Assembly: GCA_947088345.1 (NCBI GenBank)
Contig: CAMUGE010000001.1
Span: forward strand, 1-64,000
Source of the DNA: an uncultured Roseburia sp.
GTDB taxonomy: Bacteria; Bacillota; Clostridia; Lachnospirales; Lachnospiraceae
Length of the DNA stretch: 64,000 bases
Direction of reading: 5' to 3'
Shown here: positions 25,025 through 63,616 of the stretch, one piece after another
Layout of the letters: each line of letters opens with the position of its first letter
Numbering within the stretch: position 1 is the first letter of the stretch
Program-made: the position numbers and the translations under genes
The notes under the pieces: model-generated
Databases searched by the model: none
The model's input: the letters and a program-made list of their open reading frames with translations, nothing else
Told to the model about the DNA's origin: nothing

Positions 25025-26065
25025 ATGGACGAACAGGATAACATGACAAAAAATGACCAAAGCGCGTCATCCGTTTCACTGGATAAGGAGACGGGCAGTA
25101 ACGGAAGCGCGGCAGCGCACACCAAAATAACCGGTACCGGAAACAACCCGGGGAACGCAAACAGTTATGGGAGCAATGGCCAAAACAATTTTGGGGATAT
25201 GGGAGGAAGCAATGGAAATGCCGGAAACGGAGCCGGCTATGCAACTGGTGGAAACAGCTATGGAAGCGGACCGGGCTATGGGAATACAAATAGTTCCGGA
25301 GATGCAAACGGCTATGGAAACGCTGCCGGAAATTATGGAAATGCCGGGAACGGAAGCGGCTGCGGAAATGCCGCGGGAAACTATGGAAATCCTGCGGGCG
25401 GCTACGGAAGCGGACCGGGCTATGGGAACGCAAACGGTTACGGAACCGGAGGAGGCAATGAAAATGCCGGGAACGGAGCCGGGTATGGAAGCAGTGGAAA
25501 CAGCTGCGGAAGCGGACCGGGCTATGGAAGTAATGGAAACAGCTATGGAAGCGGACCGGGTTATGGGAACGCAAACGGCTACGGAAACGGAGCCGGGAGT
25601 TACGGCTATGGAAACGGTCAGAGCGGACAGACATACGGGAATGGAAATGGTCAGAACGGACAGACATACGGCAGCCAGCAGTATTCCTATCAGTCGCAGA
25701 AACAAAAGGACAACAATCAGGGATTTGGCATCGCATCTCTTGTACTTGGGATTGTATCGCTGCTGCTGTTCTGTACCTGTATGAACTGGATTACTGCGAT
25801 TCTAGCAGTAGTGTTCGGGGTGATTCAGCTGACAAAAAGTAAAGAGAAAGCGCTGGCCATTACCGGTATTGTTACGGCAGGCGTATCTATCGTATTCAGT
25901 ATTATTTTTTACATCATTGTAGGATTTAGTTCCTATGATAGCTCTTATAATTACTACAAAAATTTTCCATATGATTACTATAATTATTACAATCAATACG
26001 ATTACGATACGCCGGAGGACGGCGGTGTAAAGCATCTGGAGGCATTTGTGCCGACAGAGGAGTAG
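25025..26065 (+). CDS. membrane protein with Gly/Asn/Tyr-rich N-terminus and DUF4190-like domain
   Basis: 346 residues from the ATG at 25025; the ribosome binding site is poor, so the start is uncertain. Residues about 45-215 are made of irregular SYGSGPGYGN / GNGAGYG units. The hydrophobic pair GFGIASLVLGIVSLLLFCTC and a second segment ending in IIFYIIVGF match the DUF4190 two-helix domain. The tail is Tyr-rich with acidic residues. Both soluble parts probably lie on the same face of the membrane. Function unknown. It converges with the araC-type gene, leaving 4 bases between stops. Confidence 0.75.
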   Translation: MDEQDNMTKNDQSASSVSLDKETGSNGSAAAHTKITGTGNNPGNANSYGSNGQNNFGDMGGSNGNAGNGAGYATGGNSYGSGPGYGNTNSSGDANGYGNAAGNYGNAGNGSGCGNAAGNYGNPAGGYGSGPGYGNANGYGTGGGNENAGNGAGYGSSGNSCGSGPGYGSNGNSYGSGPGYGNANGYGNGAGSYGYGNGQSGQTYGNGNGQNGQTYGSQQYSYQSQKQKDNNQGFGIASLVLGIVSLLLFCTCMNWITAILAVVFGVIQLTKSKEKALAITGIVTAGVSIVFSIIFYIIVGFSSYDSSYNYYKNFPYDYYNYYNQYDYDTPEDGGVKHLEAFVPTEE

Positions 26066-35440: not shown

Positions 35441-36436
35441 ATGTTAGGTACAGATATTGGCATAGATTTGGGAACCGCAAGTATTTTAGTATATATCAAA
35501 GGAAAAGGGGTCGTACTAAAAGAACCGTCCGTAGTGGCGTTTGACCGTGATACAAATAAAATAAAAGCAATCGGCGAGGAGGCGAGGCTGATGCTTGGAA
35601 GGACGCCGGGCAATATTGTGGCGGTCAGGCCGCTTCGTCAGGGAGTTATCTCCGATTACACCGTAACAGAAAAGATGATCAAATATTTTATCCAGAAAGC
35701 GCTTGGCAAAAAGACATTCCGTAAACCGCGCATCAGCGTCTGTGTGCCGAGCGGTGTCACCGAAGTAGAAAAGAAAGCGGTCGAAGATGCGACATTCCAG
35801 GCGGGCGCCAGGGAGGTCAAAATTATTGAGGAGCCGATCGCGGCTGCGATCGGGGCGGGAATTGATATATCGAGGCCATGCGGAAATATGATTGTCGATA
35901 TCGGCGGCGGTACGGCGGATATTGCAGTGATTTCTCTTGGCGGGTCTGTTGTCAGTACGTCAATTAAGATTGCGGGGGATGATTTTGACGAGGCAATTGT
36001 CCGATATATGAGAAAGAAGCACAATTTATTGATCGGAGAGCGCACCGCGGAGGATATCAAGATTAAGATCGGTTCCTGTTTTCCGCTGGCTCAGGTTGAA
36101 ACAATGGATGTCAGGGGCAGGAATCTTGTGACCGGCCTTCCGAAAACCGTTACCGTGTCGAGCGAGGAGACGGAGGAAGCGCTGCGCGAACCGACGCTTC
36201 AGATCATAGAAGCCGTGCACTCGGTGCTTGAGAAGACGCCGCCGGAACTTGCGGCAGATGTGGCAGACCGCGGGATTGTACTGACAGGGGGCGGTTCGCT
36301 TCTTCGGGGTCTGGAGGAGCTGATTGAGGACCGGACAGGGATAAACACAATGGCGGCTGACGAACCAATGACCTGCGTTGCCATTGGCACAGGCAAATAT
36401 GTAGAGTTTCTGGCAGGAAAACGAGACGATGAATAG
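35441..36436 (+). CDS. mbl: MreB/Mbl-type cell-shape actin
   Basis: 331 residues. An ATP-dependent filament former that guides side-wall synthesis. GIDLGTASILVYIKGKG is phosphate loop 1, PSGVTEVEKKAVEDA is typical MreB, DIGGGTADIAVISLGG is phosphate loop 2, and LTGGGSLLRGLEELI is the adenosine motif. It is named mbl rather than mreB because flhO- and flhP-like genes follow, the order known in Bacillus subtilis, and mreC/mreD are absent. A repeat element separates it from flhO. Confidence 0.85.
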   Translation: MLGTDIGIDLGTASILVYIKGKGVVLKEPSVVAFDRDTNKIKAIGEEARLMLGRTPGNIVAVRPLRQGVISDYTVTEKMIKYFIQKALGKKTFRKPRISVCVPSGVTEVEKKAVEDATFQAGAREVKIIEEPIAAAIGAGIDISRPCGNMIVDIGGGTADIAVISLGGSVVSTSIKIAGDDFDEAIVRYMRKKHNLLIGERTAEDIKIKIGSCFPLAQVETMDVRGRNLVTGLPKTVTVSSEETEEALREPTLQIIEAVHSVLEKTPPELAADVADRGIVLTGGGSLLRGLEELIEDRTGINTMAADEPMTCVAIGTGKYVEFLAGKRDDE

Positions 36437-36497
36437 CCTGAAATTTGTAATTTTACGATCCTGATCGAAATGCACGCCGAAGAGGGCGTACGAAAGT

Positions 36498-36633
36498 AAG
36501 CATGAAAAGCGCTTCAAAAGCACAGGCCAATGGGCATTCTGCTGAGATTACCAAAAGTTTACGCCAGAGAATCTTAAAAAGCGCGCCATGTATGGCGTTG
36601 GATTCTTTGCTCAAATTAAAGTTGCGGCAAGGA
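36498..36633 (+). repeat. 136-bp intergenic element, divergent copy
   Basis: Lies between mbl and the flagellar genes. It aligns to the 53546 unit by the TA(A)GC-start codon edge, the GCCAATGGGCAT hairpin shared with the 62336 copy, the CGCCAGAGAATC junction and a 3' AAGGATAAAGTG edge. The period from one edge to the next is 136. The internal hairpins are degraded, with an added CGCCAT/ATGGCG hairpin near 36583-36596. Confidence 0.6.
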
Positions 36634-36636
36634 TAA
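36502..36636 (+). CDS. possible 44-residue peptide from the repeat element
   Basis: An ATG at 36502 begins MKSASKAQANGHSAE and runs 44 codons to a TAA at 36634-36636, nearly the full element. The first residues align with the 17-residue peptides of the other copies (MKSTCKAHANGH...). The stop found at codon 18 in those copies is lost here by a small rearrangement. Rich in Lys, Arg, Leu. There is only a weak upstream ribosome binding site, so translation is doubtful. Confidence 0.3.
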   Translation: MKSASKAQANGHSAEITKSLRQRILKSAPCMALDSLLKLKLRQG

Positions 36637-36671
36637 AGTGAAATTCACACACAGAAAGGAAAGGGACAGAC

Positions 36672-47922: not shown

Positions 47923-49360
47923 TAATTTTGGCCTCAAAATTATAGCCGTTATGGCTGCGGTCAGTTTATGGATTTTTGTCGGAAATATTGATGATCCGCA
48001 AAAATCTCTGCCTTATACAATCAGCGTTACACCGATCCATACGGAGTATCTTGCCTCACAGGATAAATATTTTGAGGTGCTTGACTCCAATAATACAATT
48101 ACATTTACGGCTACTGCAAAGCGAAGTGTAATGACTCGCGTTTCCGCATCCGATTTTTCGGCGACAGCCGATATGGAAAAGGTCGAGTTTGATGAGAAAA
48201 CCGGAAATTACCGTGTGCCGGTGACAATTACAAACAACAAATACAGTGCGACGCAGCTTACCATTACGGCCAAAAACCCGTATCTTCAGATTGTACTGGA
48301 AGATATGGGACGCATTCAGAAGACAATCACCGCCGATACTAGGGGGAACGTCGCGACAGGCTGTGCGCTTGGAGACGTTCATGTTGTCGGGTCAAACCTG
48401 TTAAAGATTACCGGACCGTCCGCCCTTGTGAGTCAGGTGGACACGGTAAGAGGGACGATAAACGTGGATAATATGTCGCAGGATGTGACGGACAGCGTAG
48501 TACCGGTGCTCTACGACGCGCAGGGCAATCCGATGGATACAACAAAGCTGACACTCAGCATGAGCACGGTTACAGTAGAGGCGCAGATTCTAAATACAAA
48601 AGACGTGACCGTAGAAGTTAATGCATCGGGAAAGCCGGCGGACGGGTATATGGTGACGGGTATTTCTAACGTACCGGAGTCGGTAAAGATCAAAGGGGAA
48701 GCGGCAGTATTAAATCCGATCAATAAGATCACAATCCCGGAGGATGTGTTAAATATTGCAGGGGCAAATGCGAACCTTGAAACAACAATAGACATCTCCG
48801 CATATCTGCCTCAGGATACCGCATTGGTGAATAATTCGGATGCAAAGATACATGTCACTGTCAGGATAGAGCCGATTGTAAAGCGTACTTTTGAAGTGCC
48901 TGTATCGCGTATTACTGTTTTAAATCTGCGTGACAATTACCATGTGGACTTTGGAGTGGAAGCGATGACGGTAGAAATTGCGGGTTCCGGCAGAGCAATG
49001 GCATCTTTTTCAGAAGGACTGCTGCGAGGCACGATCGACGCTGAGGGGCTGTACGCAGGTCATTATAATCTGCCGGTTGAATTTGAACTGGATGAGACAA
49101 AATATCAGACAACCGCTGTTGTGCAGGCGCCTGTGATCATTACCTATCAGGGGTCTGATAATTCCGGCGGACAGGCGCCGCCACAGACCGGCGGACAGCC
49201 GGAGGGCAGTGAACAGCCGGGTGATACACAGCAGCCGGAGGAAAATCAGACGCCGGGCGATACACAGCAGCCGGAGGGCAGTGGACAGCCGGGTGATACA
49301 CAGCAGCCGGGGGAAAATCAGACGCCGGGCGATACACAGCAGCAAAATACCGGTCAGTAA
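47891..49360 (+). CDS. cdaR: YbbR-domain regulator of CdaA
   Basis: 489 residues: one N-terminal membrane helix (about 13-35), an extracellular array of YbbR repeats (about 35-410), and a Pro/Gln/Gly/Glu-rich tail (about 420-489) encoded by two 72-bp repeats. CdaR proteins modulate the cyclase. AAAAGGAGG lies inside cdaA before the ATG. The tail is unusual and may reach into the wall. Confidence 0.88.
   Translation: MLKKLGKRIINNFGLKIIAVMAAVSLWIFVGNIDDPQKSLPYTISVTPIHTEYLASQDKYFEVLDSNNTITFTATAKRSVMTRVSASDFSATADMEKVEFDEKTGNYRVPVTITNNKYSATQLTITAKNPYLQIVLEDMGRIQKTITADTRGNVATGCALGDVHVVGSNLLKITGPSALVSQVDTVRGTINVDNMSQDVTDSVVPVLYDAQGNPMDTTKLTLSMSTVTVEAQILNTKDVTVEVNASGKPADGYMVTGISNVPESVKIKGEAAVLNPINKITIPEDVLNIAGANANLETTIDISAYLPQDTALVNNSDAKIHVTVRIEPIVKRTFEVPVSRITVLNLRDNYHVDFGVEAMTVEIAGSGRAMASFSEGLLRGTIDAEGLYAGHYNLPVEFELDETKYQTTAVVQAPVIITYQGSDNSGGQAPPQTGGQPEGSEQPGDTQQPEENQTPGDTQQPEGSGQPGDTQQPGENQTPGDTQQQNTGQ
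49199..49342 (+). repeat. two 72-bp tandem repeats in the cdaR 3' end
   Basis: Units 49199-49270 and 49271-49342 differ at only a few bases. Each encodes a 24-residue unit of the type PEGSxQPGDTQQPxENQTPG... They could expand or shrink by slippage. Confidence 0.82.
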
Positions 49361-51985: not shown

Positions 51986-53545
51986 ATGAAAAATGTAAGG
52001 ATAGATTGGAAAGATTATGTCACGAAACACAGCGGACTGATTTTGCTCTCTGTCATTACATCAGTTCTCTGCTTCGGTTTTCTTGCGTTAGACGGAAATA
52101 TCCGCATTGATACCGAGGAACTGATCAATACGCCGGGTACAACGCTCGGCTGGCTTCGTATTGGCAGATTTGGGCTTGTACTGTTCAAACGCTTTCTGGG
52201 GCTGTCGACGCATCATGCGTGGTTAAGCGGTCTTTTGTTTCTGCTGTTTTTCAATCTTTCCGCCAATTTGCTCACTTTTTTGTTTTATCATGTGAGCGGC
52301 AAAAATGAAAAATATCCGTATTGGGTATTTCTTTTGCTCTATAGTACGTCGAATATCTGGTGTTATCAGATTTATTTTTCGCTGCAGCAGGCGGAAGTTG
52401 CACTGGCGCTTTTTCTGATAGCGCTGGCGGCGTTTCTTGCGTTTGAGGGCAGTTTTATAGCGCGTGGATTCTGGGGATTCGTGTGTCAGCTTTTTGCCGG
52501 GATTCTTTTGATTGTAGGCTTTGGCGCTTATCAGGCGTTTGTGGCATATTATATTGCAGTTTGTGTGTCATCGTTTCTGCTGTATCTCTTTAGCAGGCAT
52601 ACGTCCGATGTGCGCGCGCTGTTTTCTGGAACAGGAAAACTGCTGGCATCTTTTGCCTTTTCTTATGGGATTTATCTATGGATTGCAAAAACATGGTTTA
52701 TGTCGACCGGTGAATATCTGACCGGTCAAATGGGATGGGGCAGGCTGACGGCGGCAGGTTGTATTAAAAATATTGTTAAAACGGTACAGCGTGTTGTGAT
52801 TTGCCGTGGATCGGAATATTTTTCGTTTTATGCGATTGGCGCAGTTTTTACAGCGGTTGCCGTTATTATGATTTGCCGCAGAAACTTTGCGAAGAACCGT
52901 GTAAAATGTGTCCTTTGTGCTGCGTCGGCGTTTGGTCTTATGCTGACGCCGTTTCTTATGACTGTCTATATGGGAGAATTTGTCGTGACAAGGGCGCAGT
53001 TTGCGCTTCCCGTTGCGTCAGCGTTTCTGGGAATGTACGGAATTGGAGAGCTGACAGCTGTGTCAGGCAAAAAATTTGCTGCATTAAGCAGTCTGCTGGC
53101 GTTTGTTTTTATGCTGGTGCAGTTTGCATATTGTATGCAGCTGACTTATACGGATGATGTGAGGTATCGGGAAGACGTGTTATTCGCAGACGATGTTCTG
53201 CATACAATTAGCGAGACATGCGGGGAGAATGCGGCGAAAAAGCCGTTTGTTTTTGTCGGGCGGCGCATTCCAAAGCTTAAACGGGGCTGTGCCAGAACAG
53301 AGATGTTCGGGTGGTCGTTCTTTGAGTGGGATTACCATCCCGCTATGCAGACTGGCGCGACACATCGTATTGTAGGTTTCTTAAATGCTTATGCGGATGC
53401 AGGTTTTAAAGAACTGCGGGATGAAACACTGCTGCTGGAAGCGCAAAAACTGGCAAAAGAACTTCCGGTTTATCCGGAAAAAAAATCAGTTTTGGAGACG
53501 AAAGATTATATTTTGGTGCATTTATCGGATGAAGATGAGGGATAA
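51986..53545 (+). CDS. GtrII-like polytopic membrane protein (putative glucosyltransferase)
   Basis: 519 residues, about ten membrane segments. The outer-loop motif RIDTEELI and the WLRIGRFG stretch near 50 resemble GtrII-family (GT-C-like) proteins that add glucose side groups to surface glycans with a lipid-linked donor. The soluble C-terminal part (about 410-519) follows the last helix. AAGGAAACCGG precedes the ATG. Its stop is followed at once by the tandem repeat element. Confidence 0.7.
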   Translation: MKNVRIDWKDYVTKHSGLILLSVITSVLCFGFLALDGNIRIDTEELINTPGTTLGWLRIGRFGLVLFKRFLGLSTHHAWLSGLLFLLFFNLSANLLTFLFYHVSGKNEKYPYWVFLLLYSTSNIWCYQIYFSLQQAEVALALFLIALAAFLAFEGSFIARGFWGFVCQLFAGILLIVGFGAYQAFVAYYIAVCVSSFLLYLFSRHTSDVRALFSGTGKLLASFAFSYGIYLWIAKTWFMSTGEYLTGQMGWGRLTAAGCIKNIVKTVQRVVICRGSEYFSFYAIGAVFTAVAVIMICRRNFAKNRVKCVLCAASAFGLMLTPFLMTVYMGEFVVTRAQFALPVASAFLGMYGIGELTAVSGKKFAALSSLLAFVFMLVQFAYCMQLTYTDDVRYREDVLFADDVLHTISETCGENAAKKPFVFVGRRIPKLKRGCARTEMFGWSFFEWDYHPAMQTGATHRIVGFLNAYADAGFKELRDETLLLEAQKLAKELPVYPEKKSVLETKDYILVHLSDEDEG

Positions 53546-53681
53546 TAGTGTGAGAAGAACTTCTAAAGCTCGCAGCAGATCCTGCTTCGCTAAGAAGTTC
53601 TAAGTCTCACACCAGAGAATCCCAAAAAACAGGGGATTCTCCGCGCAGATTTGAGTCGCGGCAGAGCCGCGACATGGAGGT
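53546..53681 (+). repeat. 136-bp intergenic element, tandem copy 1
   Basis: Identical by eye to copy 2. Order: TAG, start codon GTG at 53550, a bulged hairpin with arms near 53551-53564 and 53590-53610, hairpin 2 (53615-53623 with 53633-53641, 9 bp), hairpin 3 (53655-53662 with 53666-53673, 8 bp, AGA loop), then ATGGAGGT leading into copy 2's TAG-TGTG. Confidence 0.9.
53550..53603 (+). CDS. possible 17-residue basic peptide in copy 1
   Basis: GTG-started frame MRRTSKARSRSCFAKKF ending TAA. A GAGG lies in the upstream gene end. It is duplicated exactly in copy 2 (53686-53739) and its length and pattern (T4, K6-A7, A14, K16, aromatic 17) recur in the 62340 copy. Translation is not proven. Confidence 0.35.
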   Translation: MRRTSKARSRSCFAKKF

Positions 53682-53817
53682 TAGTGTGAGAAGAACTTCT
53701 AAAGCTCGCAGCAGATCCTGCTTCGCTAAGAAGTTCTAAGTCTCACACCAGAGAATCCCAAAAAACAGGGGATTCTCCGCGCAGATTTGAGTCGCGGCAG
53801 AGCCGCGACATGGAGGT
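53682..53817 (+). repeat. 136-bp intergenic element, tandem copy 2
   Basis: Second exact unit; the period is 136. Its 3' edge ATGGAGGT is followed by TAGTGTG at 53818, the start of a third, decayed unit or a new ORF. Confidence 0.9.
53686..53739 (+). CDS. possible 17-residue basic peptide in copy 2
   Basis: Same frame and sequence as the copy 1 peptide. Here the GGAGG at copy 1's 3' end lies 6 bases before the GTG, a good ribosome binding site. Confidence 0.4.
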   Translation: MRRTSKARSRSCFAKKF

Positions 53818-53821
53818 TAGT

Positions 53822-53878
53822 GTGGAAGAATACGAAAGCTCTACTAGTACGATTTTAAAATTTCTTAATAAGGAATAA
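53822..53878 (+). CDS. possible 18-residue peptide after the tandem repeats
   Basis: The GGAGG of copy 2 precedes a GTG at 53822, reading VEEYESSTSTILKFLNKE then TAA. It begins in the place where a third repeat unit would, but the sequence differs and is acidic at the start. It overlaps no known gene. Confidence 0.3.
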   Translation: MEEYESSTSTILKFLNKE

Positions 53879-53879
53879 C

Positions 53880-53908
53880 TTGTACTATGTTGCAGAATGT
53901 GGTAAAAT
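53880..53908 (+). promoter_or_regulatory. sigma-A type promoter for rfbB
   Basis: TTGTAC (53880-53885), a 17-base spacer, TAAAAT (53903-53908), about 83 bases before the start. Confidence 0.6.
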
Positions 53909-53990
53909 ATGGAAAATATTGTTGTTTCCTGGCTTTTGTATGATTGATATATTTACTGGCGTCAGGAAAATGAGAAAGGGGACGAATGTA

Positions 53991-55073
53991 ATGAGGACAT
54001 ATCTGGTTACAGGCGGCGCAGGATTTATTGGTTCTAATTATATCCATTATATGTTCCGCAAATATGGAGATGAAATACGCATCATTAATGTGGATGCGCT
54101 GACATATGCGGGGAATCTGGAAAATTTAAAAGAGGTTGCAGAACGCAGTAATTATACGTTTATCAAGGCGGATATTACGGATAAAGAGGCGATTACAAAG
54201 ATTTTTTCAGAGAATGAGATTGACAGGGTTGTGCATTTTGCGGCTGAGAGTCATGTCGATCGAAGTATTAAAAATCCCGAAGTTTTTGTCAAGACAAACG
54301 TACTCGGCACGGCAGTGATGTTAAACTGTGCAAGGGAATCCTGGGAACTGCCGGACGGCTCTTACAAGGAGGATAAAAAGTTTTTGCATGTGTCAACAGA
54401 CGAGGTCTACGGGTCTCTTGAGGACGACGGCACTTATTTTTATGAGACAACGCCGTATGCGCCGCACAGCCCGTATTCGGCCAGCAAAGCTTCCTCGGAC
54501 ATGCTGGTGAAAGCATATATTGACACGTATCATTTTCCGGCCAATATTACAAATTGCTCCAACAATTACGGACCATACCAGTTTCCGGAGAAACTGATAC
54601 CGCTTATTATCAACAATGCGCTTTTGGGAAAAAAGCTTCCGGTTTACGGTGACGGGAAGAATGTGCGCGACTGGCTTTATGTGGACGACCATGCAAAAGG
54701 GATTGATATGGTGCAGGAGATGGGACGTCTGGGAGAGACTTACAATATTGGCGGACACAATGAGAAGCAGAATATTGAGATTATTACTATTATCCTTGAC
54801 ACACTGCTTGAGATGCTGCCGGAGGACGACGCGCGCAGAGCGCATATCAGCAGAGATCTGATTACCTATGTGGAGGACCGCAAGGGACACGACAGGCGTT
54901 ATGCTATTGCGCCGGACAAGATCAAAGCCGAAATCGGCTGGGAGCCGGAAACTATGTTTAAAGAGGGCATTAAAAAGACAATTGCATGGTTCTTTGAACA
55001 CGAAGAGTGGATGAAAAATGTGACCAGCGGCGATTACCAGAATTATTATAAAGAAATGTATCACGGGAAATAG
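53991..55073 (+). CDS. rfbB: dTDP-glucose 4,6-dehydratase
   Basis: 360 residues from the ATG at 53991 (AAAGGGGA 9 bases upstream; the 37-codon extension to 53880 would overlap the promoter). Second step of dTDP-L-rhamnose synthesis. [11 protein letters not shown] binds NAD; STDEVYG holds catalytic Thr/Asp/Glu; YSASKASSD carries Tyr/Lys. [13 protein letters not shown] is the substrate region. Confidence 0.94.
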
Positions 55074-60913: not shown

Positions 60914-62338
60914 ATGTATCAATCAAGGGAAAAACTGCAGGATATGGTGTTACTGCTTACCGATATTATCTGTTTTATGGTAAGTTATCTGGGCGGCGGC
61001 TATCTGTGGCTGGTCGGATATCGTAATGTCTCCGTTGCGGATATGAAGACGGAGCTGTTGGAAAGTTTTGGCGTTGTGTTTGTCATCTATGTGCTGTTTA
61101 TGTTATTTTCGGATTTAGAGCGTAAGTTTATCCGCAGAAGCGTCTACCAGGAGATTTGGGCCGCGGTAAAAGCGGGCGTTGCACTGGTTTTTATCATGGC
61201 TATGATTATCTTTTTGCAGCACAATAATGCGGATGCATCCAGAGGCGTATATTTTTGTATTGCGGCGATTAATACCGTTATCTTTTTTGCCGCGCATATG
61301 CTGTTAAAGTATTATCTTTTGCGCGTTTATCGCAATAAGCGGGCGGCGAATCAGGTTTTTCTTGTGACGACAGGGGATCGCGTTTCCGATATTATGGCGG
61401 AAACGGATAATGCAAGGGACTGGGAACATCGGCTGGCAGGGATTGCCATTATCGACGATAATCAGATCGGCAGATGGTACGAAGGCGTTCCGGTTGTTGC
61501 GACTTATTCCAATATGTTTCAGTATGCGAAAGAACAGATTGTGGATGAGGTATTTATTGACGTACCGTATGAGGACGGCAGTTCGCTTGCAAAAGTGGTA
61601 CAGGAATTTGCTAATATGGGGGCTACGGTTCATATCACGATTGAACTGCTTCATAAATTTGACGATTATCATAAGAGTTTTACCATGCTGGGATATATAC
61701 CTGTCATTACATTCACCAATCAGTATAACGACTGGAAGATGCTTGCCGTAAAACGTCTGATGGACATTGCAGGTGCGCTGATCGGACTTCTTATTACTGC
61801 TGTAGTCACTGTTTTTTTGGCGCCGCCGCTCTTGATTGAATCACCCGGGCCGCTGTTTTTTTCACAGCAGCGTGTCGGCAAGAACGGGCGTTATTTTAAA
61901 ATATATAAGTTCCGTTCGATGTACAGGGATGCGGAGGAGCGAAAAAAAGAGCTGGAACACCAAAATGAGATGGGCAGTGCGCTGATGTTTAAAATGAAAG
62001 AAGATCCGCGCATCACGAAAGTCGGAAAATTTATTCGAAAGACAAGTATTGACGAGCTTCCGCAGTTTTTTAACGTGCTAAAAGGCGATATGAGTCTTGT
62101 GGGGACAAGGCCGCCGACGGTTGATGAGTTTAAGCAGTACGAACTGCACCAGAAGCGCCGTTTAAGTGCAAAACCCGGGATTACCGGACTCTGGCAGGTC
62201 AGCGGCAGAAACCGGATCGTTGATTTTGACGAGGTGGTAAAGCTGGATGTGCAGTATATTGACAATTGGAGCATAGGGCTGGATTTAAAAATCCTGTGCA
62301 AGACAGTATTGGTTGTATTTAAAAGCGAGGGCGAGTAG
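60914..62338 (+). CDS. polyprenyl-phosphate sugar-1-phosphate transferase (second copy)
   Basis: 474 residues. Four N-terminal membrane segments, a Rossmann-like middle and the sugar transferase domain: FSQQRVGKNG, IYKFRSMYRDAEER, TSIDELPQFFNVLKG, SLVGTRPPTVDEF, KPGITGLWQVSGRN. Only moderately similar to the 8864 enzyme and probably uses another sugar. Starts the locus II glycan. AAGGAGG precedes the ATG; its stop TAG is the first base triplet of a repeat element. Confidence 0.9.
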   Translation: MYQSREKLQDMVLLLTDIICFMVSYLGGGYLWLVGYRNVSVADMKTELLESFGVVFVIYVLFMLFSDLERKFIRRSVYQEIWAAVKAGVALVFIMAMIIFLQHNNADASRGVYFCIAAINTVIFFAAHMLLKYYLLRVYRNKRAANQVFLVTTGDRVSDIMAETDNARDWEHRLAGIAIIDDNQIGRWYEGVPVVATYSNMFQYAKEQIVDEVFIDVPYEDGSSLAKVVQEFANMGATVHITIELLHKFDDYHKSFTMLGYIPVITFTNQYNDWKMLAVKRLMDIAGALIGLLITAVVTVFLAPPLLIESPGPLFFSQQRVGKNGRYFKIYKFRSMYRDAEERKKELEHQNEMGSALMFKMKEDPRITKVGKFIRKTSIDELPQFFNVLKGDMSLVGTRPPTVDEFKQYELHQKRRLSAKPGITGLWQVSGRNRIVDFDEVVKLDVQYIDNWSIGLDLKILCKTVLVVFKSEGE

Positions 62339-62469
62339 CGTGAAAAGTACCTGTAAGGCTCATGCCAATGGGCATATCGCCAACAAGTACTAAGTTTCAC
62401 GCCGAAAAATGCCAAAAAACGGCATTTTTGATCTGAACATGAGTCACAGCAAAGCTGTGCTATGGAGGG
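62336..62469 (+). repeat. 134-bp intergenic element, single copy
   Basis: Same plan as the 53546 units: TAG (stop of the upstream gene), GTG at 62340, hairpin ATGCC/GGCAT inside the short ORF, hairpin 2 (62405-62413 with 62421-62429, AAAAAAC loop), hairpin 3 (62445-62450 with 62454-62459, AAA loop), then ATGGAGGG ahead of TAGCGTG at 62470. Stems differ in sequence but stay paired. Confidence 0.82.
62340..62393 (+). CDS. possible 17-residue peptide in the element
   Basis: GTG-started frame MKSTCKAHANGHIANKY then TAA. Preceded by GAGGGCGAGTAGC, which contains a usable Shine-Dalgarno overlapping the upstream stop. It matches the length and pattern of the 53550 peptide. Translation is unproven. 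Confidence 0.35.
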   Translation: MKSTCKAHANGHIANKY

Positions 62470-62473
62470 TAGC

Positions 62474-63616
62474 GTGGGATTTCAGTCTGTTTTATCTATG
62501 TTTATGTTGTTTGTTGTGATACCGGTATGGATCGGGATGATCTGGGTGAGATTTTTGCGGATCAAAGACGGAGCGGAAGTATTTTTTATGGCGTGGATTA
62601 CGGGGATTGTGACGATGCTTGCAGTCGGGCAGATTGTACTTGTCCCAATGATTGCAGCAGAGTCAACGCTTTCGCTGGCGGTTTCGGTCATTAAAATGTT
62701 GTATACGGTATTCGCAGTTATTTCCTTTTATATTGTTCTGGGACGTTTTTTTACTCCCAGTGTAAAATCAGACATAGAAAACGCCCGTGGGACGATTGAT
62801 ACTGATATTAAGGGAGAGGACGCTGATGAGAAGCGCGGGGCTGTTAAGGAAAATGCTGGAAAGAAAAGCATATTTACGGCAGTATTTGGAGTGGCTGCCG
62901 CTCTTCTTATTTTTCTGCAGGCTTTTGTGCCGGCGTATTATCAGCACATTGACGATGACGATTCGCGTTTTGTGTCCGAGGAGGTTTCGGCGGTTGTGCA
63001 TGACACTATGCTCAAAGACGATCCCATCAGTGACCGGTTTATGTATTGGGATATGGGGGAGACGCGAAAAGATCTTGCTTCGCCGTGGACGATGTATGTC
63101 GCAGCGTGCTGCCGTATTGTAAATCTTGCGCCTGCTGTTTTTTCTCATACGTTGTTTCCTTTTTTTATGATTCCGATTTGCTATGCCGTTTTTTTTATGA
63201 TCGGCTGTATTTTGTTTCGGGACGACAGGGAAAAAGTGTTTTTATTTCTGATTTTTTTATCGGTCTTGCTGATCTGGGATTATACGTCGACACATACGAT
63301 AGGGTCGATGCTTCTGCTTCGGATCTGGCAGGGAAAAGCGCTTGCGGCCAGTTTTATCATACCGGTTTTGCTGCTGTTGTTTTACCGGATTTTGCAGCAA
63401 AAAGAGTCGGTGCGTGAAATGGCTCTGCTGCCGGTCGTATCGTTTGCCGGCTCTCTGGTATCGGGGATTGGGATTGTGATTGTTTCGATTCTGCTGGCAA
63501 TCTACGGTCTGGTTGATTTTATCTATTACAGGAATGGAAAGAAAACGCTTGCCATTTGGATGTCGGCAGCGCCATGCGGGGTCTATCTGGTCTATTATTT
63601 AAGTGGAATTGTTTAA
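62474..63616 (+). CDS. polytopic membrane protein (DUF6077-like)
   Basis: About 380 residues from the GTG at 62474, whose GGAGG is provided by the repeat element 5 bases earlier; an ATG at 62462 in the same frame lies inside that site. About nine membrane segments, with a variable acidic loop near residues 105-135 and YYQHIDDDDSRFVSEE near 160, a DDD motif like those of GT-C enzymes. The next gene starts 32 bases later. Possibly a glycan-modifying enzyme. Confidence 0.68.
   Translation: MGFQSVLSMFMLFVVIPVWIGMIWVRFLRIKDGAEVFFMAWITGIVTMLAVGQIVLVPMIAAESTLSLAVSVIKMLYTVFAVISFYIVLGRFFTPSVKSDIENARGTIDTDIKGEDADEKRGAVKENAGKKSIFTAVFGVAAALLIFLQAFVPAYYQHIDDDDSRFVSEEVSAVVHDTMLKDDPISDRFMYWDMGETRKDLASPWTMYVAACCRIVNLAPAVFSHTLFPFFMIPICYAVFFMIGCILFRDDREKVFLFLIFLSVLLIWDYTSTHTIGSMLLLRIWQGKALAASFIIPVLLLLFYRILQQKESVREMALLPVVSFAGSLVSGIGIVIVSILLAIYGLVDFIYYRNGKKTLAIWMSAAPCGVYLVYYLSGIV

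What the first reader, a model, noticed from the sequence alone, without database searches (positions are those of the whole stretch)
53546..53817. Exact tandem pair of a 136-bp hairpin element with its own ribosome binding site
Two apparently identical 136-bp units lie between the GtrII-like gene and rfbB. Each unit has three inverted repeats and ends in ATGGAGGT, which places a Shine-Dalgarno 6 bases before the next unit's GTG. The unit therefore repeats in phase as start codon, short ORF, hairpins, ribosome binding site, start codon. Perfect identity implies recent duplication or ongoing conversion. I know of no named repeat with this plan.
Basis: partly seen in the sequence, partly recalled or inferred. 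Interest (0 to 1): 0.82.

Follow-up and report, generated by a model that had tools for sequence, protein, structure and literature searches.

The report
Modular hairpin repeat at gene junctions
The tandem pair belongs to a large, apparently undescribed family of small non-coding repeats in Lachnospiraceae bacteria that sit in the gaps between neighbouring genes, usually read in the same direction as the gene that follows, and are present in one species and missing at the same place in another.

Summary
In detail: 53546-53681 and 53682-53817 are identical 136-mers, each folding into three hairpins. The pair is one member of a dispersed, modular repeat family. I found 77 arrays in 254,787 nt fetched from the same genome around hits. 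Matches occur in 14 of 60 genus genomes and 4 of 200 family-level genomes, own genome included in both. In a congener, G032, the pair is absent and the site reads TAG^TGTGAGAAAC, the TAG being the upstream gene's stop codon there. Arrays run with the downstream gene in 67 of 76 cases; in 15 of 35 testable cases the element's first triplet is the upstream stop codon. Stems show strong compensatory change. I read it as a mobile, non-autonomous, BOX-like composite repeat; I found no Rfam entry and no paper. Mobility is inferred from presence/absence, not seen. The mobilising enzyme is unknown; Y1 and IS110 transposases were not detected in the two high-copy draft genomes.

The parts
53546..53681 (+). 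repeat unit 1 (type A, 136 nt): TAG + head hairpin, middle hairpin, tail hairpin, ATGGAGGT
53682..53817 (+). repeat unit 2, identical to unit 1
53548..53612 (+). head hairpin of unit 1 (GTGTGAGA...TCTCACAC plus inner stem); repeated at +136
53615..53641 (+). middle hairpin of unit 1 (GAGAATCCC...GGGATTCTC); repeated at +136
53655..53673 (+). tail hairpin of unit 1 (GTCGCGGC...GCCGCGAC), preceded by GATTTGA; repeated at +136
53674..53681 (+). SD-like tail ATGGAGGT; repeated at 53810-53817
53818..53827 (+). right junction TAGTGTGGAA, read as the right side of the target site; the congener G032 reads TAGTGTGAGAAACC here without any element
53543..53545 (+). stop codon TAA of the GtrII gene, abutting the array; in G032 the frame runs one codon further, to the TAG of the site
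62336..62469 (+). second full unit in the window (B2-like, 134 nt; BLAST-matched part 62336-62432). Its TAG is the stop codon of the upstream sugar transferase gene (PF02397). Its right junction GGAGGGTAGC precedes a GTG (62474) that aligns with a GTG in G032; an in-frame ATG in the tail (62462) is an alternative start. G032 empty site: GAGGGCGAGTAG^TGTGAAATATC
36434..36490 (+). degenerate copy (type C-like) starting at the TAG stop codon of an MreB gene (PF06723)

Best explanation
The pair is two head-to-tail copies of a small (about 64-170 nt), non-coding, non-autonomous mobile repeat. Units are built from a head hairpin starting TAG-YGTGARA, an optional middle hairpin, and a GATTTG-linked tail hairpin ending in SD-like purines. 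Shown: many copies; presence/absence differences between congeners; mixed head-to-tail arrays; orientation with the downstream gene; arms kept complementary by paired changes. Inferred: a unit is inserted (or removed) at TAG^YGTGA, often the stop codon of the upstream gene, by an enzyme supplied in trans that acts on unpaired or extruded hairpin DNA. The join lies after TAG, so the upstream stop codon survives, and the tail takes the place of the old ribosome-binding region when a start codon follows at once. This would make insertion between co-transcribed genes tolerable, so the element behaves as a nearly neutral selfish linker whose hairpins become part of the operon mRNA. Tandem pairs then arise by local duplication or by a second insertion at the regenerated TAGYGTGA.
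For: Copies: 53 rows; 62 rows, type B; 40 rows, type D; rows overlap between searches; 77 arrays in 254,787 nt chosen around hits. TAGYGTGARA occurs 81 times there against 2 for the reversed pattern; GGNNNTAGYGTGARA 27 times in the own genome against 1 for the reversed pattern. Empty sites: the window's own pair and four other G000 arrays have G032 sites without the element that read TAGTGTGA (C16_46271, C1_62336, C1_69096, C34_12694). rapZ of G045 carries a unit just before its GTG start while G057, its closest match, has none. Downstream gene on the same strand 67 of 76, p=4e-12; upstream 53 of 74, p=2.6e-4; the element's first triplet is the upstream stop codon in 15 of 35. 34 modelled pairs in 30 units: 97.2% of cells paired, 14 pairs with changes on both sides (1 of 500 shuffles as high), covariation score 0 of 500, 91 two-sided against 8 one-sided cells. 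In two cases (C34_12694, C1_62336) the unit's left junction is TAGC although the G032 site has TAGT, which places the join after TAG. 100 neighbouring proteins match 144 Pfam families, the commonest in 4 proteins, against a dedicated regulon.
Against: No mobilising enzyme was found and no movement was observed. My hand classification of the 36 rows gives 5 unoccupied G032 sites with TAGTGTGA but 10 unoccupied without it, 2 shared copies, 12 sites with another element or fragment (some may be diverged orthologues), and 7 rows dropped as repeat-to-repeat or unclear. Target specificity therefore rests on 5 of 15 unoccupied sites plus G057, which has TTCG in place of TAG. The empty sites could also be scars of precise loss. 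In 31 host-flanked units the last tail bases resemble the host bases left of TAG more than permuted pairs do (mean shared suffix 1.35 against 0.55, 0 of 20,000); the five best cases are all followed by another unit start. That suggests that some tandems copy a few flank bases and are not simple clean joins. In one search the number of further pair types was not above the shuffles (453 of 500 as high), and related sequences inflate such counts.
Confidence: 0.7

Rival explanations
1. A host-owned cis-acting RNA module (mRNA stabiliser, translational coupler or attenuator) that spread because it benefits the operons carrying it.
For: Sense orientation with the downstream gene; conserved hairpins; SD-like tails; type-D units end right before start codons ('close start' rows). 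G-T pairs exceed A-C mismatches among head stems (18 against 10) and in a looser tail set that includes chance matches (63 against 19), which leans towards a + strand RNA.
Against: Neighbouring genes share no evident function (top 25 of 144 families seen). Tails beside genes are no more SD-like than internal tails. In the cleaner 39-unit alignment G-T and A-C are near equal (11 and 9). At 15 of the 36 compared rows the orthologous G032 junction has no unit.
Confidence: 0.15
2. A REP/BIME-like or IS200/IS605-derived element moved by a Y1 (RAYT-type) transposase.
For: No terminal inverted repeats; a hairpin close to the tail end; a short motif (TAG) before the head hairpin; orientation-specific joining after TAG.
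Against: PF01797 has no match in G000 or G032, the two high-copy genomes; it is found in 22 of 62 genus genomes and in 4 of the 14 repeat-bearing genomes. Both are drafts (90.5% and 87% complete), so the absence is not absolute.
Confidence: 0.08
3. A derivative of an IS110-type element using a bridge-RNA-like guide (the guide mechanism is recalled, not looked up).
For: No terminal inverted repeats, an apparently sequence-specific target, and a structured unit.
Against: No PF01548 match over the cut-off in G000 or G032; each has one weak hit in an open frame of about 1,445 residues, as many other genomes do, which I take for a chance match to an exonuclease domain (inference). Over-cut-off hits occur in 22 of 62 genus genomes and in 3 of the 14 repeat-bearing ones.
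Confidence: 0.03
4. The tandem pair (not the family) is an assembly duplication.
For: The two copies are identical and the genome is an 80-contig draft.
Against: Other tandems exist, some with diverged copies, and the junctions on both sides fit a real insertion when compared with G032.
Confidence: 0.1

Closest known systems
BOX elements of Streptococcus pneumoniae (PMC3049150; passages and section 9 seen)
   Same: Short composite repeats of hairpin-forming modules, variable in number, dispersed in the chromosome; the paper reports 36 genes whose stop codon lies in a BOX repeat, and BOX transcribed as 5' and 3' extensions of operons.
   Different: Other taxa: the titles of the 26 stretches name Lachnospiraceae or genera that I recall as belonging to it. 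Whole units stack head to tail, not one inner module. No terminal inverted repeats seen (the paper mentions TIRs for BOX). Joining point TAG^YGTGA. Sequence similarity to boxA/B/C was not compared.
REP/BIME sequences with RAYT transposases (PMC2817692, PMC3733652; passages seen)
   Same: High-copy extragenic palindromes with a conserved short motif beside the hairpin, arranged in composite arrays.
   Different: Units here are longer (64-170 nt against 20-40 bp in PMC3733652), multi-hairpin and head to tail; TAG, not the GTAG or CGTC tags; no Y1 transposase detected in the two high-copy genomes.
MITE-like small repeats such as RUP, SPRITE, ERIC and Correia elements (PMC10969869 passages; background passages of PMC3049150; otherwise recalled)
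   Same: Small elements in intergenic regions, thought to be moved in trans, able to change the mRNA of neighbouring genes.
   Different: MITEs are defined there by terminal inverted repeats and target-site duplications; here the two unit ends are not inverted repeats of each other.

Membership tests
BOX elements | composite of separable hairpin modules with variable copy number | tested here: met
   Head, middle and tail modules occur in different combinations; arrays mix types A, B, C, D
BOX elements | boxA/boxB/boxC sequence homology | not tested
   No BOX sequence was compared
MITE with DDE transposase | terminal inverted repeats | tested here: not met
   Unit ends TAGTGTGAGAAG and ATGGAGGT are not inverted repeats of each other (read)
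MITE with DDE transposase | fixed-length target-site duplication | tested here: inconclusive
   TAGYGTG is shared by both junctions, but TAGTGTGA is already in five empty sites; a few flank bases recur in some tails
REP/RAYT | Y1 transposase (PF01797) in the genome | tested here: not met
   0 matches in G000 and G032; drafts, so absence is not absolute
REP/RAYT | 20-40 bp single palindrome with a GTAG-type tag | tested here: not met
   Units of 64-170 nt with two or three hairpins and TAG before the head
IS110 derivative | DEDD transposase (PF01548) in the genome | tested here: not met
   No hit over the cut-off in G000 or G032; drafts
Rfam RNA family | match over gathering score | tested here: not met
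   53400-54050: best S35, 27.1 bits against 69; 20 repeat-bearing loci: three hits (tRNA, TwoAYGGAY, group II intron), each in an 8-kb locus and away from the recognised units
Small protein gene | reading frame conserved among copies | tested here: not met
   ORF lengths from the GTG scatter among 39 units

The most novel reading that the evidence does not exclude
A class of mobile hairpin element without terminal inverted repeats that targets stop-start junctions of operons (TAG^YGTGA) and is shaped so that insertion rebuilds both the upstream stop codon and the downstream ribosome-binding region, moved by an enzyme that is neither a Y1 nor an IS110 transposase.
Probability: 0.3. Interest if true: 0.75.

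Novelty: new variant of a known kind. Interest (0 to 1): 0.52.

Why it matters
If right, operon junctions in a group of gut bacteria are being rewritten by a small element that fits between stop codon and start codon with little disturbance. This offers a natural experiment on intercistronic RNA structure, a possible strain-typing marker, and a search for an unknown mobilising enzyme. It would also place BOX-like composite repeats outside the streptococci.

Tried and rejected
Rejected: a conserved short ORF. Rejected: SD under stronger selection beside genes. Rejected: an SD-rich left flank as the distinguishing feature of target sites (17 of 45 array starts against 11 of 33 TAG stops without element, mean anti-SD energy -2.98 against -3.03; all stops without element 40 of 164, -2.11). 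Rejected: intrinsic terminator or sigma-70 promoter in the pair (one terminator-like site at 53480-53462 and one promoter-like site at 53944-53971, both outside the pair and near shuffled expectation). Rejected as resident mobilisers, within draft genomes: Y1 and IS110 transposases. Phage carriage: 0 hits in viral contigs for one exact pattern, weak evidence. An integron attC reading was considered from recalled motifs and dropped; it was not tested with a tool.

Limits. The strand test (G-T against A-C) is inconclusive: 11 against 9 (39 units), 18 against 10 (126 of 149 heads), 63 against 19 (136 of 319 regex-picked tails, many of them chance or duplicate rows). The Pfam scan of 100 neighbours shows only the top 25 of 144 families, so a single transposase could be missed. 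Gene calls come from my own hexamer-and-start scoring. Some downstream starts were called at the tail's own in-frame ATG, so start-codon positions beside tails are ambiguous. A recognisable head was found at the left boundary of 45 of 77 arrays. The 77 arrays are a sample built around search hits; the own-genome searches scored at most 40 first-look candidates each.

Papers: PMC3049150 (passages and section 9), PMC2817692, PMC3733652 and PMC10969869 (passages only); all other papers were seen only as search listings.

Full report
Check. The two units are real, identical and at the stated coordinates. Each folds into three hairpins, far beyond shuffled sequence. No Rfam family reaches its threshold there.

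Family. The 136-mer gives 53 match rows in its own genome. A related 122-nt unit gives 62 rows and a 98-nt unit gives 40; these overlap and each search scored only 40 first-look candidates, so they are neither additive nor a census. Merging the fetched stretches gave 77 arrays in 254,787 nt, three of them in the window: 53546-53817, 62336-62432 (full unit to 62469 by reading) and 36434-36490. Units share a head TAG-YGTGARA hairpin, an optional middle hairpin, GATTTG plus a tail hairpin, and an SD-like end; types A, B, C and D (my labels) mix in head-to-tail chains. Matches to the 136-mer occur in 14 of 60 genus genomes, own included, with two of them, G000 and G032, at high copy, and in 4 of 200 family-level genomes, own included. 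The one scan of named genomes, with a single exact pattern, returned 26 stretches, 24 of them titled as MAGs, under Lachnospiraceae, Blautia, Parablautia or Lachnoclostridium. One exact-pattern scan of viral contigs returned none.

Mobility. In G032 the GtrII gene (84% identity over the query) and rfbB follow each other, but the pair is missing and the site reads GAGGGATACTAG^TGTGAGAAACC; the TAG is that gene's stop codon in G032, whereas the window's gene ends one codon earlier in TAA. I searched G032 with joined upstream flanks and obtained 28 places. One search then compared 36 array rows, which I classified by hand: 5 empty with TAGTGTGA (including the window's own site), 10 empty without that motif, 2 shared copies, 12 holding another element or fragment, 7 dropped as repeat-to-repeat or unclear. 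Some of the 12 may be diverged orthologues (70-84% identity, against flanks of 84-92%), while others match only in short pieces. In the rapZ comparison (58 of 62 genomes matched, 30 loci returned and read, one of them, G006, too short to show its upstream region), G045 has a unit between GGATGGAGTTAG and CGTGAAATTTG, and its closest match G057 has GGATGGAGGTTCGTGTGAAATTTG without it (RapZ-like domain PF03668). G000, G032 and G058 show a tail-like hairpin and GAGAGG before the rapZ ATG, which I read as old remnants (inference).

Where the units sit. With simple gene calls, the downstream gene is on the same strand in 67 of 76 arrays and the upstream gene in 53 of 74. Of 35 arrays with a recognisable head and a same-strand upstream gene, 15 have the first triplet of the head as that gene's stop codon (14 TAG, 1 TAA); TAG ends 49 of 198 called genes. 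The window's 62336 copy is a clean case: TAG closes a sugar transferase gene (PF02397), and the tail GGAGGGTAGC precedes a GTG of a DUF6077 gene that aligns with a GTG in G032. My gene caller preferred the tail's own in-frame ATG there and at several other arrays, so the true start is open. SD-like left flanks are not more frequent than at TAG stops without an element, and tails beside genes look like internal tails. The SD-like end is therefore a property of the element and not shown to be kept for translation.

Structure. In 30 aligned units the 34 modelled pairs are 97.2% paired, 14 pairs show changes on both sides, and no shuffle of 500 reaches the covariation score; sliding the partners destroys it. 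Only 8 cells changed on one side against 91 on both. The number of further pair types was not above the shuffles (453 of 500 as high). Cells count sequences, not independent events, and the structure was taken from one of the sequences. Near-equal G-T and A-C counts in 39 units (11 and 9) fit DNA hairpins or arm correction at least as well as RNA; the heads (18 and 10) and a loose tail set (63 and 19) lean towards RNA. This stays open.

Tandems. Other tandems include an identical 134-nt pair (L099), four copies (L077) and a 114-of-136 pair (L008). Tail ends resemble the host bases left of TAG beyond chance in 31 host-flanked units (0 of 20,000 permutations). The five best cases are all followed by another unit start, which suggests local duplication that takes a few flank bases along. 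The window's own pair does not show this: its left flank ends GATAA, its tails AGGT.

Mobiliser. PF01797 is found in 22 of 62 genus genomes but not in G000 or G032. PF01548 is over its cut-off in 22 of 62 but not in those two. Neighbouring proteins match many unrelated families. The enzyme is unknown.

Comparison. The closest published analogue that I looked at is the pneumococcal BOX element: composite, hairpin-forming, transcribed at both operon ends, and supplying the stop codon of 36 genes (PMC3049150). The present family may work in a similar way but is not shown to be a member. I found no description of it in seven literature searches; the library holds only open-licence PMC papers.

Noticed in passing
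window 36434-36650: Decayed repeat modules directly after the stop codon of an MreB gene; G032 carries a different unit at the same place.
   Followed up: partly
L161 1501-1598 and other type-D places: A related 98-nt unit type often ends in an AATGRGGAT-like stretch immediately before an ATG start codon (about ten 'close start' rows), so its tail could serve as the ribosome binding site.
   Followed up: partly
tails beside genes, e.g. window 62462-62476: The tail's own ATG is often in frame with the start codon that follows (ATGGGGGTTAGCATG and the like), so it could act as an alternative start adding four residues.
   Followed up: no
L077 6049-6546 (- strand): Four tandem units of 124-125 nt whose tails (GGAATAG in the first three) repeat the host flank left of the array (GGGAATAG).
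   Followed up: partly
window 49196-49343: Coding tandem repeat (72-nt period) at the C-terminal end of a 489-residue protein.
   Followed up: no
window 25356-25673: Cluster of short tandem repeats (periods 21, 39 and 33) reported by Tandem Repeats Finder.
   Followed up: no
L064 7391-7567; L081 7677-7838: Group II intron D1D4-3 and TwoAYGGAY RNA matches in repeat-bearing loci of other Lachnospiraceae.
   Followed up: no
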